From assembly GCA_015075105.1 (NCBI GenBank), contig JABTUZ010000001.1, forward strand, positions 1 through 64,000: a stretch of 64,000 nucleotides of DNA, written 5' to 3'. Shown in pieces: positions 21,861 through 45,273 of this stretch. The notes under the pieces are model-generated. The model was given only the letters and a program-made list of their open reading frames with translations. It did no database searches and was not told where the DNA came from. The position numbers and the translations under genes were made by a program. The number at the start of each line of letters is the position of its first letter. Positions within the stretch are counted from its first letter, which is position 1. Source of the DNA: Leptospiraceae bacterium (GTDB lineage: Bacteria; Spirochaetota; Leptospiria; Leptospirales; Leptospiraceae).

Positions 21861-24800
21861 ATGAATAACGAACAACTTATCAACGATGCTCATCAAATGG
21901 CAGATATAGCACTTGCAAGTGAAGAACCGATTCGAGCAAGGGAATTGGTTAAATTCTGTTTGCCGAACAATCCATTTCTTGCAAAAATTGCCTCGGACAA
22001 GCTCGATACTCCATTGTTTATATTGCAGAGTATGCAGGAAAAGGACGCAAAACAATTCTTATCGAAGTTAAAACCATCTGTTTTGAAATGGCTTTGGAAT
22101 TATGAAAAGAACAGTAGTAAACTGAAGGACTTTTTATCAGAAAAACTTTCAGCAATTAAAAAATTAGATCTTGAGCTTGCAATAGATTCTGAATTTGCCA
22201 AAGAAGATTTTCATCAGACTTTATCTCAGGAAATCGAAAACGGAAAAATTTTCTTTGATACAGGGCTGTTGTTTCAGACGAAAGTAACTTGTCCTTCCCA
22301 ACTAGAAAAAGTAATTTCAAAAATCAAGGTTCTCATTTTATCTCCGGTGATTGATTTTTTCAGAGAGGCAGAATTTATCGTAATCGGTCCCCCGAATTAT
22401 AAAGGAGAGTTTTCGATTCAATTGGGTAATACTGCAATTTATCAGGAAAATTTTACTCTCGGAAGTAGAGGTTATCAAAAGTTTAATTTTCAATATCAAA
22501 ATTTTAAAAACCATCTTCCTGCTGAAGAAAGAAACAGAAGTATGATACTGCTATGTGCAGTGAAAAATCTACTTCAAAAAGAAAATCTATTCGATTGTGT
22601 ATCGCCATTTCTCTATGATCCGAATTTTTCTTTGACTAAGGGAGATTTAACTTTGGAAATAGTATTGAATAGATGGGAATTTTTTTCAGAAAAATTAGAA
22701 CTTGAAATCCAATTGAAAGAAATTCATAAAAAATTTTCCGGAAAGGGAGAATTTACACTTCGTTGCCAATCCTGTGCATCTACAATCGGCACAAGAACGA
22801 TGGATTTAAGAGATGGTAGAGTACAATTAACGTATCCTGTTCTGGGTCATAAAGGACCCTTCGTTTTGTGTTTTACTGCCGAAAAAAGCGGGCGTAAATG
22901 TTCCGCAATAGTTCCTTCTTCTGATTTCAAATTGCTTGATATTACAGAAAAAAATACAGACATATTTCAAATCGAAATGGATGAGATTTTTATAGACTCT
23001 GAATTTATACAATCTGATTTGATAAGTAGTGAAAATCCGGTCTATTATTACTGGGTGACTTCTAAAGGATGCTCATACCATCCGATTCTTGAAAATATTT
23101 CGGGGGCGGGAGTTTTCCCCGGAAATTTTGTTCCGGCAATGAACAGAGCCAGAAGATTTATACTATACAATGAATTTGGATTGTCCTCAAATCCAACAAT
23201 TCATTTTATTCCGGAGTCATCAGAAAAGATCAAAACTATCACAATTTTGAATAATTATGAACCGGGAGATTATGAACTTCACGTAATTGGAATTCATTCG
23301 GGAATACCGGAATACAAATCTTTTGAATTTGCAGTCTCAAATAATCTAAAGAAAATATTTCCGGGAGCTTTACTTCCAAATGATAAAGTAACCGCTAACA
23401 TCCTACTCGCTGAAAAAAATCCAATAGAGATACTGGATTCTGGAAAAAATCCACTACCCTGCACTTTACATAATAATATCCGTTCTTATGAGATGGAATG
23501 TGAGGGTTCAAAAGAGAATATTTTTTTTGCAAAACTCGGTAATAACGGAAGCACAAAAACAGAAGAGATCAAAATTCTTCCGTTAGAGAATCCGCACAGA
23601 GTCGTAACAGTTGAGTCATGGTCTCCCGTACTGGATGTAAATTCTATTCCTGATTATGAAGATCGCCTAACGGATGATCTGCATGACATAAAAGAAGGAC
23701 AGATACTTTTGCTCAAAGATTTTATCTTGAAAATGGCGTTAAACCTCTGGAACTATGAAAATTATTGCGGAGAACAGAGTTCATCCAGATTGTTTGCTTT
23801 AGGGGTATTAAATTTCATGGAATACCCTGATTTTTCAAAGATCGATTCTGAAAAAGAATTATTCCTACTGAATAAAATGAATGAATATTACTCGGTCTCT
23901 TCGGGTCTTTTTGCTCTTTGGAAAGATTGCCCTCCCAATAACAAAACTACTTCTAAAGTAATCCGAAATCTTTCGATTTTTCAGAATACCGGCCATCCAG
24001 CAGGTAACCTCCTGAATCAATCGCTTGCAAGGCTAAAAGAAAAGAGTATCTACTTGAATTCACTTGGCTTTTTTAACAAAGATTTTCAGGATTTTGAAAA
24101 TATTAGTCTTTTTGCTTTGTGGGAAAATCTTTGGAGATCAAAAAAAATAGACACAAATTCTGCTATCTGGAAAAGATTTCTAAACTATCTATTCTTAAAA
24201 AAGAATAGAAAAGCAGTTCCGGTCTATGTTCCCGATTACTGGTCTGAGAGTGAGTTAGATGGAATGCGTTTCTATTGTGCAATGATACTCGGAAAAGACA
24301 GTATAACTTTAAAGAGCATTTCAAGAAAAAAAGTAGAGTTATCTTTTTTTCAAAAACTTTTGAAAACTGTCAAACTCGCTGATTACAAAGAATTTGAGGA
24401 AGAAATAGTGCAGGAAATGCTATCCAATCCTATAGAGAATTTACAAAAGAATCTATCCCGAATGTTTTACCATCAGGGAGGAACTTCTCTTTTTGGAAAC
24501 ACTCCGGGTTCAGTCGCTTTTTTACAGGGACTGCTCGGACTTCATAGTCTTTTGAAGTTTAAAGATTTGAGTTTTGAAAAAAAAGTAATCGAATACAATT
24601 TTTCTAACGGGTTAGGTGAAAACAAGGACATAAAGTGGACTTATCCGGAAGAGACATGGCAAAAGAATGCACCTCAAAAACTTTCAGTCACCGTTCCTGT
24701 TCAAGGAGCGGCTAACGCAGTTTTAGAAGTTTTTGTCCCTTCCCATTCCAAGATCATAAGTATTGAAAATGGATTTATTTCCAAAGACAAAACTTATGCG

Positions 24801-24944
24801 CAAATTCCACTTGCAGGTCTTACGAAAGCAAGCATCACCCTTGTGCCCTATCTATCAGGAAATGCAGGACTTCAGGCTCGGGTCACCTCGATGTACGACA
24901 ATAACTGGGGAGGATCGTTTGAGAGAATGGTGGAGAGTAAGTAA
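21861..24944 (+). CDS. Large alpha-2-macroglobulin-like protein with CGEQ thioester motif
   Basis: A 1027-residue protein. The key feature is LWNYENYCGEQSSSRLFALG, with C636-G-E-Q639, identical in its core to the thioester motif (GCGEQ) that begins the toroidal thioester domain of alpha-2-macroglobulins and complement proteins. Helical segments after it (about 640-870) fit the toroid. The C-terminus (LSVTVPVQGAANAVLEVFVP to VTSMYDNNWGGSFERMV) is beta-rich, as in receptor-binding-type domains. The N-terminal 600 residues are mostly beta-rich with scattered cysteines. Unlike known bacterial A2M proteins it has no signal peptide or lipobox and is about 500 residues shorter. I recognise only the motif and its setting, not full-length homology. 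Role in trapping proteases is a guess. Confidence 0.5.
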   Translation: MNNEQLINDAHQMADIALASEEPIRARELVKFCLPNNPFLAKIASDKLDTPLFILQSMQEKDAKQFLSKLKPSVLKWLWNYEKNSSKLKDFLSEKLSAIKKLDLELAIDSEFAKEDFHQTLSQEIENGKIFFDTGLLFQTKVTCPSQLEKVISKIKVLILSPVIDFFREAEFIVIGPPNYKGEFSIQLGNTAIYQENFTLGSRGYQKFNFQYQNFKNHLPAEERNRSMILLCAVKNLLQKENLFDCVSPFLYDPNFSLTKGDLTLEIVLNRWEFFSEKLELEIQLKEIHKKFSGKGEFTLRCQSCASTIGTRTMDLRDGRVQLTYPVLGHKGPFVLCFTAEKSGRKCSAIVPSSDFKLLDITEKNTDIFQIEMDEIFIDSEFIQSDLISSENPVYYYWVTSKGCSYHPILENISGAGVFPGNFVPAMNRARRFILYNEFGLSSNPTIHFIPESSEKIKTITILNNYEPGDYELHVIGIHSGIPEYKSFEFAVSNNLKKIFPGALLPNDKVTANILLAEKNPIEILDSGKNPLPCTLHNNIRSYEMECEGSKENIFFAKLGNNGSTKTEEIKILPLENPHRVVTVESWSPVLDVNSIPDYEDRLTDDLHDIKEGQILLLKDFILKMALNLWNYENYCGEQSSSRLFALGVLNFMEYPDFSKIDSEKELFLLNKMNEYYSVSSGLFALWKDCPPNNKTTSKVIRNLSIFQNTGHPAGNLLNQSLARLKEKSIYLNSLGFFNKDFQDFENISLFALWENLWRSKKIDTNSAIWKRFLNYLFLKKNRKAVPVYVPDYWSESELDGMRFYCAMILGKDSITLKSISRKKVELSFFQKLLKTVKLADYKEFEEEIVQEMLSNPIENLQKNLSRMFYHQGGTSLFGNTPGSVAFLQGLLGLHSLLKFKDLSFEKKVIEYNFSNGLGENKDIKWTYPEETWQKNAPQKLSVTVPVQGAANAVLEVFVPSHSKIISIENGFISKDKTYAQIPLAGLTKASITLVPYLSGNAGLQARVTSMYDNNWGGSFERMVESK

Positions 24945-39007: not shown

Positions 39008-40930
39008 TTAGTCTTGAAATTCAATGCAAAGTAAGGTTAAGTCATCTTGAAATTTTGAACTGCATAAAAAAGAATGTAATGCGTTGATAATCGTTTTAGG
39101 CATTTTTTCTAAATTTTCTTTTTTTAGAAATAACTCGTGAAGCCTTTCTTCTCCAAATACAACACCTTCCGAGTTGAATTCTTCATACATTCCGTCTGAA
39201 AAAAGAAATAATCTGTCATTTTTTTGAAAGGAATAATCTTTTTTAGAATATTCTGAATTTTTTAGCATTCCAACTAACTTCCCTGTTTTAGAAAGTAAAA
39301 TTTTTTGATTTTTTTGAAGATACACTTGATCAGGGTGTCCGGCAGATACATAACTAAGAGTTTGAAATTGCAAATCAATATCCACCAATATACAAGAAAA
39401 GAATGAGTTTAAGCTCCGATATTTCATGTAAAATTCTCGATTTAATATTTCTAAAAGCTCTTCTGGATTTTGAATTACCCACTTTAAACTTTCGTATTCT
39501 CCTTTAATCGCCATAGTAATCAAAGCTCCTTGCACTCCGTGACCGGTTGCATCAGCCACAAAAATTCTAATTACATTTTTTTTGACTTCGCTTACGTCAA
39601 ATATATCTCCACCAACTTCAGACATAGGAGAATACAAAGATTGAATCTTAATATTTTTTAACTTGTCTAAGTCGGCAGGTAGAATATTGGTTTGAATTTT
39701 TTTTGCCAAAATTAAATCTTTCTTGATGATGGACAAAGAATCGTTCAATTCCTTGGTTCTTTCTTGAACTTTATTTTCTAATTCAGCCGTATGGGCTTTT
39801 ATTTGTCTTAAAATATCAGAAAATCTTTTATGTAAAATGATAACCAATGAGAATAGAAATAAGGCTACCCCCCATTGAAGTATTCCTTGGATCGTGGTAT
39901 TTGTATAAACTGCCATTACAAGATCAAAAAGTGCAACAACAACATAACACGCTACACCAATAGAGAAAATTTTTGCTTCGGTGTTTCCTTTTCTTACATG
40001 ATAGGAAATTCTACTTAGGTGAACAACGACAGTTGCTAAAAGTAATAATTGATAATAGGGAAGAGTGGATTCGAGGTGGACGAACTCAAAAAATGAAATA
40101 AATAAACTTACTATTGCAAATACGAGATGTGACAATAATAACACTCTCGAAATAGAGAATCTTCCTCTTCCGATCATTTCTTCAGCAAAAGAAATCCCGA
40201 ATACAGGCAGTAGGTATAAAGAAGAATACATTGCAAAAGGCCAAAAAATTGTACTTTTGACATAGAATGAAGAGATTGGATGTACATTAGAAAGCAAATA
40301 TATTCCTGAGAAAAAACAAAAAGAAGAAAAAGATAAAGCTAATTTTTGATGAGACTGGGTTAAGAAAAACGCAAAAGTTAAAACTCCGATAATTGCATAA
40401 AAGCAACCGATTATAAAAGAAGATAATTCTTTTTTGAAAAGTGTTTGATACAAGTCTGCATGATTGCCGATTTTTATTGTGTGGAATCCGATATTGTGAG
40501 AGGTCGAATACATTTTAATATACAAAAACTTTGCAGTATTTTTTGAAATCGGAAGCATTGCAGTTTTCCAACCATCCCAGCGATTCTTCCCTATCTCACC
40601 AAAAGAATACAATTTCAGATCGTCTAAGTAAACAACACAAGTCTTGCTTATATCGAAAAATAAAGTAGGGTTAGAAATATTTTTCAGATCGGGTATTTCT
40701 TTTCTAAACCAAACTATAGTAGAGTTATTTTTGCCTTCTGGGTTATTCGGGTTCTCTATTGTTTTCCAATCTTTTAGGCTCTCTACATCAGAGACGTTAG
40801 TTGCAATGCTTTGAGTGCTACTTTCAAATCTATATTCCCAATTTTTAGAAAGGTCTATTTCCTTATTCGTGTTCTGGCTTAGTAAATTTTCACAGAAAAA
40901 AAGAAAAGGTAAAAGAAATAAAAGCTTCAA
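39008..40930 (-). CDS. 7TM-DISM receptor with C-terminal SpoIIE/RsbU-type phosphatase
   Basis: A 640-residue protein. It has a signal peptide (MKLLFLLPFLFFCENLLS), an extracellular jelly-roll domain (about 25-165, for example WFRKEIPDLKN and SFGEIGKNRWDGWKT), seven membrane helices (about 175-365) and a coiled coil (ELENKVQERTKELNDSLSII). A PP2C-type serine phosphatase follows (about 415-635: SEVGGDIFDV, VADATGHGVQGALITMAIKG, YVSAGHPDQVYL and LFLFSDGMYEEF). The Asp residues in GGDIFD, DATGHG and SDGMYEE bind the two metals. Such phosphatases dephosphorylate STAS proteins in partner switching; the STAS gene at 33343-34095 is a candidate substrate. Confidence 0.9.
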   Translation of the reverse strand: MKLLFLLPFLFFCENLLSQNTNKEIDLSKNWEYRFESSTQSIATNVSDVESLKDWKTIENPNNPEGKNNSTIVWFRKEIPDLKNISNPTLFFDISKTCVVYLDDLKLYSFGEIGKNRWDGWKTAMLPISKNTAKFLYIKMYSTSHNIGFHTIKIGNHADLYQTLFKKELSSFIIGCFYAIIGVLTFAFFLTQSHQKLALSFSSFCFFSGIYLLSNVHPISSFYVKSTIFWPFAMYSSLYLLPVFGISFAEEMIGRGRFSISRVLLLSHLVFAIVSLFISFFEFVHLESTLPYYQLLLLATVVVHLSRISYHVRKGNTEAKIFSIGVACYVVVALFDLVMAVYTNTTIQGILQWGVALFLFSLVIILHKRFSDILRQIKAHTAELENKVQERTKELNDSLSIIKKDLILAKKIQTNILPADLDKLKNIKIQSLYSPMSEVGGDIFDVSEVKKNVIRIFVADATGHGVQGALITMAIKGEYESLKWVIQNPEELLEILNREFYMKYRSLNSFFSCILVDIDLQFQTLSYVSAGHPDQVYLQKNQKILLSKTGKLVGMLKNSEYSKKDYSFQKNDRLFLFSDGMYEEFNSEGVVFGEERLHELFLKKENLEKMPKTIINALHSFLCSSKFQDDLTLLCIEFQD

Positions 40931-41925: not shown

Positions 41926-44900
41926 CTACATACTCCTTCTATACTTTCCGCCAAATTTATACATTGCAGAGGTAATCTGTCCAAGGCTTGCGTACTTTAC
42001 AGTTTCCATTAGTTCTTGAAAAATATTTCCTCCTTTTAGTGCAGTTTTTTCTAAAGATTGGATCGCTTTTTCGCACTCATTTTTATTTCTATTTTGAAAT
42101 TCATTTAGCTCGAGAAGCTGTTGTTTTTTTTCTTCTTCTGAAGATCGGATTAGCTCCATCGTTTTTTCATTTGTATTTTCTTTTCCAAGAAAAGAGTTTA
42201 CTCCGATGATTTTTAATTCCCCGGAATGTTTTAGAGTTTCGTAATATATGGACTCATCTTGGATTTTTCCTCTTTGGTACATTGTTTCCATTGCACCAAG
42301 AACCCCACCTCTTTCTGAAATTTTCTCAAATTCGTTTAAAACTGCTTCTTCCACTAAGTCGGTCAATTCTTCAATAATAAATGCGCCTTGGATAGGGTTG
42401 TGATTTTTATTCAACCCAAGCTCTTCGTTTATAATCAACTGAATTGCCATTGCCCTTCTTACAGATTCTTCTGTCGGAGTTGTGATTGCCTCATCGTAAG
42501 CATTGGTGTGAAGGCTATTCGTGTTGTCATAGATGGCGTATAACGCTTGCAGTGTAGTACGAATATCATTAAAATCAATTTCTTGAGCGTGTAGAGATCT
42601 TCCGCTTGTTTGTATATGGTATTTGAGTTTTTGAGATCTTTCGTTTGCGTTGTATCTATACTTCATGGTTATTGCCCAGATTCTTCTGGCCACTCTACCC
42701 ATCACAGAATATTCGGGGTCTAAACCATTAGAAAAAAAGAAAGATAGGTTTTGAGCAAACTCATCAATTTTCATCCCTCGGCTAAGGTAGTACTCTACAT
42801 AAGTAAAAGCGTTAGACAAAGTGAAGGCAAGTTGAGAAATAGGGTTTGCTCCTGCCTCAGCGATATGGTAACCGGATATAGAAACAGAATAGAAGTTTCG
42901 TATTTTTTCTTGAATAAAATATTCTTGGATATCTCCCATCATTTTTAGGGCAAAGTCAGTAGAGAAAACACAGGTGTTTTGAGCTTGGTCTTCTTTTAAT
43001 ATATCTGCTTGTACAGTTCCCCGTATATTTTGAAGAGTATTCTGTTTTATTTTTTCGTAGAGTTCTTTCTCGATTATCTTAGACGAAGAGACTCCAAGAA
43101 ATAAAAGCCCACTACCATCGTGTGTGTCTGGAAGGTCGCCCTGATAGCTCGGTCGAGTGACTCCTTTAATTTTAAAGTAGTTGTGAATTTTATTTTGGAT
43201 TTCGTCTAACGCACCAGTTTTTTGAATGTATTTTTCTACCTCCAAATCAATTGCAGCATTAAAGAAAAAGGCGAGTATCATCGGCGCAGGCCCGTTTATA
43301 GTCATAGAAACAGACGTAGATGGGTTACAAAGATCAAACCCGGAATACAATTTTTTCGCGTCGTCAATAGTCGGAACTGAAACTCCTGAGTTTCCGATTT
43401 TACCGAAATTGTCGGCTTCAACCTTTGGATCTTCTCCATAAAGTGTCACAGAATCAAAAGCGGTTGAGAGTCTGGAGGCGTTTTGTCCTTTGGTAAGCAT
43501 GTGAAATCTTCGGTTGGTTCTTTCGGGAGTTCCTTCTCCTGCAAACATTCTTGTAGGTGCTTCGTCAGATTTTCTAAAAGGAAATACTCCTGCTGTAAAC
43601 GGAAAGCTACCGGGTAGGTTTTCTTTGTATTTGTAGTTTAGTAATTCAGGATAAGAAGTGTAGCTTGGTAGAGAAACAAGCGGAATAGACAAACCTGAAA
43701 GAGAAGTAAAGTGTAGTTTTTGTTTGATTTCTTTATCTCTTACTTTAAAGATTAAATACTCTTCTTCGTAGCTTTTCTTCTTTTCTATCCAATTATACAA
43801 CCATTCTCTGTCTTCTTCTGGAATTTGATTTTCTAAAGAATTGATTTCATTTTCTAATTCTTTTTTTATAATTTCATCTTTTAAAAATTGGGACGTTAGG
43901 CGATAGGATTGAATTTTTTGAGAAATGTCTTTGTATTTTTCTAAGTCAGAATAATATTTTCTAATAGTGGTGGAAATATCTGAAAGGTAAGTTATTCTAT
44001 TTGAAGGAATTAGTGAAAACGAATCAGAATCTTTTGCAGAAAGCAATTCAGTATTCAAAAAATTCAAATTAAAATTGAATTTTTCTTTTAGTTTTAATAC
44101 TAAATTTTCATAGAGAAGGTTAACTCCAAAATCATTGAATCTGCTTGCAACAGTTCCAAAAACAGGCATTTCTTCAGGTGGAAGATGAAAAAGGTTTAGG
44201 TTTCGCTGGTATTGTTTTCTTACCTCTCTTAGGGCATCTTTTGATCCTTTTCTGTCAAATTTATTAATTACTACAATACTTGCGTATTCGAGCATATCAA
44301 TTTTTTCGAGTTGACTAGGTGCTCCAAAATCAGATGTCATAACATATATGGAAAAATCTGAATGAGAGGAAATTTCTGCATCTGATTGACCAATCCCTGA
44401 AGTCTCGACTAAGATTATATCGAATCCTGCTTTTTTCAAAACATGAAGAGTATCATCTAAAGATTCTGACAGCCCTCCCTTTTCTCCGCGAGTTGCAAGA
44501 GAGTGCAGATAAATTTTTTCTGAATAGACAGAATTCATTCTAATCCTGTCTCCAAGCAGGGCTCCTCCTGTTTTCTTCTTAGAAGGGTCAATACACAATA
44601 TTCCAATCCAAATATTCGGATTGGCAGAAGACAATCTTCTTACTAACTCATCGGTAAGAGAGCTTTTTCCAGCACCACCTGTTCCTGTAATTCCAATTAC
44701 TATACTTTTTTTATTTTGTGTGTCGTCTAACTTCTCTTTTTTATTTTTCCTTCTGTGATTTTCGTAGTAGGAAATAGTCTGGCTGATTTCTCTAAAATTT
44801 TTCGGACTGAGCTTTGTGTTTATTATATCTTCGGATATAGAAAAATCACACAACTCCATCATCTTGTCGATCATTCCCTGTAGTCCGATTTTCATTCCTT

Positions 44901-45273
44901 CTTCGGGAGAGTAAATTTTAGTTACACCATATTTTTCTAATTCTTGAATTTCTGAAGGGATAATTACTCCGCCGCCACCTCCAAAAACCTTTACGTGCTC
45001 AAGTCCATTTTCTTTTAATAAGTCTATTAGGTATTTGAAATACTCAACGTGTCCCCCTTGATAGGAGCTTACCGCAATTCCTTGAACATCTTCCTGCAAT
45101 GCGGATTGAACAATTTCTTTAACCGATCGGTTGTGTCCCAAGTGAATGACTTCGGCTCCACTTCGTTGGAGCATTCTTCTTATAATATTTATAGATACGT
45201 CATGCCCATCGTATAAAGATGCAGCAGTTACAAAACGAATTTTATTTTTTGGGGAAGGGTTTGAGTTTGTCAT
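41926..45273 (-). CDS. icmF: Fused isobutyryl-CoA mutase (B12 domain, G-protein chaperone, mutase)
   Basis: A 1115-residue adenosylcobalamin enzyme. The order is: B12-binding domain (residues 12-140; [11 protein letters not shown] with His24 as lower ligand, VFGGGGGVI), then a MeaB-type GTPase (P-loop [11 protein letters not shown] at 194-204, then ETSGIGQSD), then the catalytic TIM barrel and C-terminus (for example [28 protein letters not shown]-like [17 protein letters not shown], and [18 protein letters not shown]). This is the IcmF arrangement, which rearranges isobutyryl-CoA and n-butyryl-CoA, with pivalyl- or isovaleryl-CoA as further known substrates. The P-loop of the GTPase and the RGTVQADI segment are intact. 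Upstream lies a 305-bp non-coding stretch. Confidence 0.95.

What the first reader, a model, noticed from the sequence alone, without database searches (positions are those of the whole stretch)
21861..24944. Alpha-2-macroglobulin-like thioester protein without a signal peptide
A 1027-residue protein has NYCGEQSSSR at residues 634-643, matching the reactive thioester motif, in the right setting before a helical region. Known bacterial A2M proteins are lipoproteins or periplasmic and longer. A cytoplasmic one would be unusual because thioesters form and act outside the cell. It could have a start further upstream or be a new intracellular variant.
Basis: partly seen in the sequence, partly recalled or inferred. 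Interest (0 to 1): 0.6.

Follow-up and report, generated by a model that had tools for sequence, protein, structure and literature searches.

The report
Cytoplasmic-looking alpha-2-macroglobulin thioester protein
This bacterium encodes a shortened, very distant relative of the complement/alpha-2-macroglobulin "molecular trap" proteins that keeps the reactive thioester machinery but has no export signal, so a trap normally used outside the cytoplasm appears to have been moved inside it; only two other genomes searched have one.

Summary
The ORF is real (21861-24944, 1027 aa). Two full-length homologues (25-29% identity) were found, both in other genomes of the same order. All three keep C-x-E-Q, the thioester motif. 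They also keep a Tyr four residues before it and a Met-Tyr pair near the C-terminus, matching the residues that shield the thioester in Salmonella/E. coli A2M.

A profile of the three aligns with canonical A2Ms of the class over residues 475-1014 (hhalign E 4e-9; 1.4e-5 with both motifs masked; controls >=0.2). Models of low confidence, built only from these three sequences, give complement C3/C5, TEP1 and A2M as the best PDB hits. So it belongs to the A2M/complement superfamily, although Pfam and NCBIfam do not recognise it.

The missing signal peptide holds up: none of the three has one, one homologue has no room for an upstream start, and cysteine content (1.1-2.1%) is far above the canonical A2Ms of the class (0.25%). 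"Thioesters form outside the cell" is not a real objection: E. coli A2M made without its signal peptide still reacts with methylamine.

Best reading: a new, compact, cytoplasmic A2M-like variant with an orphan helical N-terminal domain, probably a covalent trap. Target, trigger and thioester formation are unproven.

The parts
21861..24944 (+). whole gene, 1027-aa A2M-like protein without signal peptide
   Evidence: ORF with SD; two full-length homologues at 25-29% identity
21861..22250 (+). N-terminal all-helical domain, residues 1-130; orphan, in place of a signal peptide and the first MG domains
   Evidence: AF2 helices with block means mostly 59-80 pLDDT; conserved in all three homologues; no credible relative
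22266..23573 (+). beta-rich macroglobulin-like region, residues ~136-571 (three to four probable MG-type domains), with invariant Cys144, Cys302 and Cys305
   Evidence: predicted strands; Foldseek alignments to C3/C5/TEP1 of about 1100-1300 columns; hhalign from residue 475
23655..24563 (+). thioester-domain-like helical region, residues ~599-901
   Evidence: helical in both AF2 models; hhalign to canonical A2M TED
23754..23777 (+). thioester motif Y632-E-N-Y-C636-G-E-Q639; Y632, C636, E638, Q639 invariant
   Evidence: pocket residues from PMC4498604
24624..24941 (+). C-terminal macroglobulin (CTMG)-like domain, residues ~922-1027
   Evidence: beta domain in the AF2 models, hhalign
24891..24896 (+). 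Met1011-Tyr1012, equivalent to the thioester-shielding Met1625-Tyr1626 of Salmonella A2M
   Evidence: invariant in three; aligned with the MY of canonical A2Ms

Best explanation
A compact (about 1000 aa), cytoplasmic, highly diverged member of the alpha-2-macroglobulin/complement thioester superfamily. Shown here: homology of the C-terminal half (residues 475-1014) to canonical A2M, and conservation of the reactive Cys/Gln and of most of the residues that shield the bond. Well supported: it is not exported by a Sec/lipoprotein signal. Inferred: Cys636 and Gln639 form an internal thioester, held shut by Tyr632 of the TED and Met1011-Tyr1012 of the CTMG domain. A trigger then separates CTMG from TED: proteolysis of a loosely ordered stretch, or ligand binding through the unique helical N-terminal domain. 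The freed acyl group bonds covalently to a nearby nucleophile. The likely use is a covalent trap or tag for a cytoplasmic target, most simply a protease that is misplaced or invading. The target itself is a guess.
For: Full-length homologues in two genomes of the same order keep CxEQ(x)SS(R/K)LFA, Tyr at C-4, and MY near the C-terminus. The A1 profile hits a canonical 2009-aa A2M of G027 exactly at the thioester motif, E 4e-5. hhalign against 21 canonical A2Ms of the class: prob. 96, E 3.9e-9; 1.4e-5 with both motifs masked; 20 column shuffles E>=0.22, reversed 0.56. The 36 best Foldseek PDB hits of a model built from three orthologues only are all A2M/complement/TEP; the C-terminal half alone gives C3b. 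No signal peptide and no upstream room. Cysteine content 1.36, 1.10 and 2.08% against a mean of 0.25% in 21 canonical A2M fragments. A2M expressed without its signal peptide is methylamine-reactive (PMC3328433). Conservation of these residues where overall identity is 25-29% argues against decay.
Against: No biochemical test. AF2 confidence is low (mean pLDDT 51 and 62; only three sequences), so the toroid is not established and the TM-scores are low. The second shielding Tyr (C-2) of canonical A2M is not conserved (N/M/A). No bait region or PF00207 domain is recognisable, so a protease-bait mechanism is not shown. Only three homologues are known, with no conserved neighbours to indicate a partner or pathway.
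Confidence: 0.6

Rival explanations
1. A2M-like protein exported by a signal-independent route (or surface-attached after lysis) that works as an ordinary envelope protease trap.
For: The characterised bacterial A2Ms in the papers read are periplasmic or membrane-associated (PMC5764988; PMC4498604); a missing Sec signal does not exclude other export.
Against: Cysteine content several-fold above canonical A2Ms of the class. No signal in any of the three homologues, and no secretion gene beside any of them.
Confidence: 0.15
2. Cytoplasmic scaffold or binding protein with the A2M fold in which the Cys and Gln are kept for structural reasons and no reactive thioester is used.
For: The second shielding Tyr is lost; the bait region is not recognisable; Type II A2Ms (MagD) show that the fold can work without a thioester (PMC5764988).
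Against: C, E, Q, the C-4 Tyr and the CTMG Met-Tyr are all invariant among sequences where only about 17% of positions are. Lineages that give up the chemistry, such as MagD, lose CxEQ.
Confidence: 0.2
3. Not A2M-related: a chance CGEQ in an unrelated multidomain protein.
For: No Pfam, NCBIfam or PDB sequence hit; AF2 confidence low.
Against: Profile alignment survives masking of both motifs, while reversed and shuffled controls fail; Foldseek returns only A2M/complement at the top.
Confidence: 0.03
4. A decaying fragment of an exported A2M gene that lost its signal peptide in this strain.
For: Shorter than canonical A2M; the same genome carries a canonical A2M gene interrupted by an in-frame stop.
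Against: The same architecture and N-terminus occur in two other genera of the order at 25-29% identity with motif residues intact; the ORF is uninterrupted.
Confidence: 0.02

Closest known systems
Bacterial Type I A2M (E. coli ECAM/YfhM, Salmonella SaA2M)
   Same: CxEQ in a helical TED followed by a C-terminal MG domain; C-4 Tyr and Met-Tyr thioester pocket; homologous (to canonical A2Ms of the same class) over residues 475-1014
   Different: 1027 aa rather than about 1650 (13 domains); no signal peptide or lipobox; orphan helical N-terminal domain; no PF00207 or bait region recognised; not next to PBP1c; several-fold more cysteine than canonical A2Ms of the class
Bacterial Type II A2M (Pseudomonas MagD)
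   Same: A2M fold family; Gram-negative-type host
   Different: MagD lacks CxEQ, is periplasmic with a signal peptide and sits in a six-gene mag operon
Complement C3/C3b, insect TEP1, human A2M
   Same: best fold matches; thioester motif of the same type (GCGEQ; the window protein happens to have CGEQ)
   Different: secreted eukaryotic proteins of about 1300-1650 aa; about 10% identity in the structural alignments
Canonical A2Ms of the same bacterial class (including one in the same genome)
   Same: profile homology, MY and CxEQ
   Different: the one in this genome has a signal peptide; full-length frames mostly 1500-2100 aa; few cysteines

Membership tests
A2M/complement thioester superfamily | statistically supported homology to A2M | tested here: met
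   hhalign E 3.9e-9, controls >=0.2; HMM hit to a canonical A2M at 4e-5
A2M/complement thioester superfamily | C-x-E-Q thioester motif conserved among orthologues | tested here: met
   CGEQ/CAEQ/CAEQ
A2M/complement thioester superfamily | alpha/alpha-toroid TED and MG domains | tested here: inconclusive
   right order of helical and beta regions, and Foldseek family hits, but pLDDT 51-62 and low TM-scores
Bacterial Type I A2M | CTMG Met-Tyr shielding pair | tested here: met
   M1011-Y1012 invariant and aligned with canonical MY
Bacterial Type I A2M | TED shielding Tyr at C-4 | tested here: met
   Y632 invariant; ECAM Tyr1183/Cys1187
Bacterial Type I A2M | TED shielding Tyr at C-2 | tested here: not met
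   N/M/A at that place
Bacterial Type I A2M | signal peptide or lipobox, envelope location | tested here: not met
   location itself not measured
Bacterial Type I A2M | PF00207 and bait-region domain | tested here: not met
   no Pfam hit up to E 5; hhalign begins after that domain; an unrecognised bait cannot be excluded
Bacterial Type I A2M | about 1650 aa, 13 domains | tested here: not met
   1001-1027 aa
Bacterial Type I A2M | gene next to pbpC (PBP1c) | tested here: not met
   neighbours are an M23 peptidase, LigA, an rRNA-methylase-like ORF and a TPR protein; no PBP1c beside either homologue
Bacterial Type I A2M | reactive thioester, protease trapping | not testable with these tools
   needs protein
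Bacterial Type II A2M (MagD) | absence of CxEQ, mag operon | tested here: not met
   CxEQ present, single gene

The most novel reading that the evidence does not exclude
A cytoplasmic, thioester-bearing A2M/complement-like protein that covalently traps or tags intracellular targets (for example proteases, or proteins brought in by phage or predators), with its own sensing N-terminal domain: intracellular use of complement-type chemistry in bacteria.
Probability: 0.35. Interest if true: 0.8.

Novelty: new variant of a known kind. Interest (0 to 1): 0.55.

Why it matters
The bacterial A2Ms described in the papers read act in the envelope. A conserved signal-less version with most of the thioester pocket intact would mean that complement-type covalent chemistry can be used inside a bacterial cell. 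It would also add a family that current domain libraries miss entirely.

Tried and rejected
Pfam, NCBIfam and PDB sequence searches gave nothing credible; PHROGs and PADLOC gave only weak hits in a single member, taken as chance. No relatives in viral contigs, plasmids or the rest of 393 genomes drawn from the phylum. Viral fold library: scattered beta-sandwich and tail proteins, not informative. N-terminal domain as an MgtE_N/FliG-like superhelix: HMM hint (MgtE protein, E 0.008; FliG_C E 0.0086) but hhalign 0.18, barely different from controls (best 0.26), so rejected. Operon or partner gene: neighbours differ in all three genomes. Promoter and terminator scans at shuffle level.

Full report
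OBSERVATION. The ORF at 21861-24944 (+) is a complete 1027-aa gene with a Shine-Dalgarno-like AAAGGA. The motif is in place: N634-Y-C636-G-E-Q639-S-S-S-R. Upstream in frame there are only 22 hydrophilic codons (FPRTLNGSNKKTFRVKNKKGSR) before a stop, so no signal peptide is hidden there.

HOMOLOGUES. Of the 48 genomes of the same class at hand, two besides this one encode a full-length homologue: G023 (contig JANSYA010000010.1, a metagenome-assembled genome) and G015, both in another family of the same order. Identity to the window protein in the alignment is 29% and 24% (27% and 25% in BLAST). None of the other seven genomes of its own family has one, nor does any other of 393 genomes drawn from the phylum. 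The DNA ligase of the window genome is 47-52% identical to that of the same two genomes, so this family evolves fast or is old and patchily kept. The three neighbourhoods share nothing.

IT IS AN A2M RELATIVE. (a) The three-sequence profile finds a canonical 2009-aa A2M in G027 exactly at its thioester motif (E 4e-5). (b) hhalign against 21 canonical A2Ms of the class gives E 3.9e-9 over residues 475-1014, pairing CxEQ with CxEQ and the C-terminal MY with MY. With the thioester motif masked it is still 1.1e-6, with both motifs masked 1.4e-5; the reversed profile gives 0.56 and 20 column shuffles 0.22-0.95. (c) AF2 models from the three orthologues alone are poor (pLDDT 51; 62 for the C-terminal half). 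Even so, the 36 best PDB matches of the whole model are all complement C3/C4/C5, TEP1, CD109, E. coli A2M or human A2M/A2ML1, and C3b leads for the C-terminal half. The TM-scores are low, so this supports the family and not a detailed structure.

THE THIOESTER POCKET. In E. coli/Salmonella A2M the bond is shielded by two TED tyrosines, four and two residues before the Cys, and by an adjacent Met-Tyr of the C-terminal MG domain (PMC4498604). Here the C-4 Tyr (Y632) and the Met-Tyr (1011-1012) are invariant in all three; the C-2 Tyr is not kept. Overall only about 17% of positions are invariant in the three, so joint conservation of Y, C, E, Q, M and Y is not what drift would leave.

WHERE IT ACTS. 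None of the three has an N-terminal hydrophobic stretch (maximum 19-residue hydropathy 0.59-0.74 in residues 1-60, against 2.13 for the signal-peptide-bearing A2M of this genome). The G023 gene starts directly after a stop (open frame 1002 codons, protein 1001). Cysteine content is 1.36, 1.10 and 2.08%, against a mean of 0.25% in 21 canonical A2M fragments of the class, about half of which have the thioester Cys as their only one. This is the pattern of a protein living in a reducing compartment. It is indirect evidence; the location was not measured.

ANATOMY. Residues 1-130 form an all-helical domain with no credible relative. Residues ~136-571 are beta-rich, macroglobulin-like, with invariant Cys144, Cys302 and Cys305. 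Residues ~599-901 are the TED-like region and ~922-1027 the CTMG-like domain. The PF00207 and bait-region domain is not recognisable. Two stretches of low confidence (about 354-467 and 558-617) could hold a cleavage site, but this is a guess.

MECHANISM. Most likely the protein is a covalent trap kept shut by TED-CTMG contact and opened by cleavage or by binding through the N-terminal domain. Shown: homology, and conserved reactive and shielding residues. Inferred: the thioester, the cytoplasmic location, the trigger. Unknown: the target. I give about 0.95 that it is an A2M-superfamily protein, 0.8 that it is cytoplasmic, 0.65 that it makes a thioester and 0.35 that it traps cytoplasmic proteins.

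PLACE AMONG KNOWN KINDS. It fails several defining features of Type I bacterial A2M (export signal, size, recognisable bait domain, second Tyr, PBP1c linkage) and of Type II (which lacks CxEQ and sits in the mag operon). It is therefore filed as a new variant within the superfamily and not as a Type I A2M. I found no description of a signal-less bacterial A2M in the open-access library, which does not cover subscription journals.

Noticed in passing
L009 4315-9903 (own genome, C1 about 302.3-307.9 kb, - strand): The canonical, signal-peptide-bearing A2M of the same genome is split into 834- and 1005-aa frames by one in-frame TAA; same-family genomes have uninterrupted A2M frames of about 1875 aa. 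Sequencing error or real loss was not settled.
   Followed up: partly
window 22764-22775 (protein residues 302-305) and residue 144: Invariant Cys144, Cys302 and Cys305 (CxxC) in all three homologues; possible metal or redox site next to the MG-like region.
   Followed up: no
window 41926-45273 (-): 1115-aa fusion of B12-binding, MeaB GTPase and methylmalonyl-CoA mutase domains, the layout of IcmF-type fused isobutyryl-CoA mutases (family name from memory).
   Followed up: no
window 39008-40930 (-): 7TMR-DISM receptor fused to a SpoIIE-type phosphatase.
   Followed up: no
G003, G006, G007 and others: Canonical A2M genes are multiplied (up to four per genome) in several genomes of the same family.
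   Followed up: no
G023:C9:1058785-1060773: The DNA ligase (LigA) match of G023 reads through one in-frame TAG.
   Followed up: no
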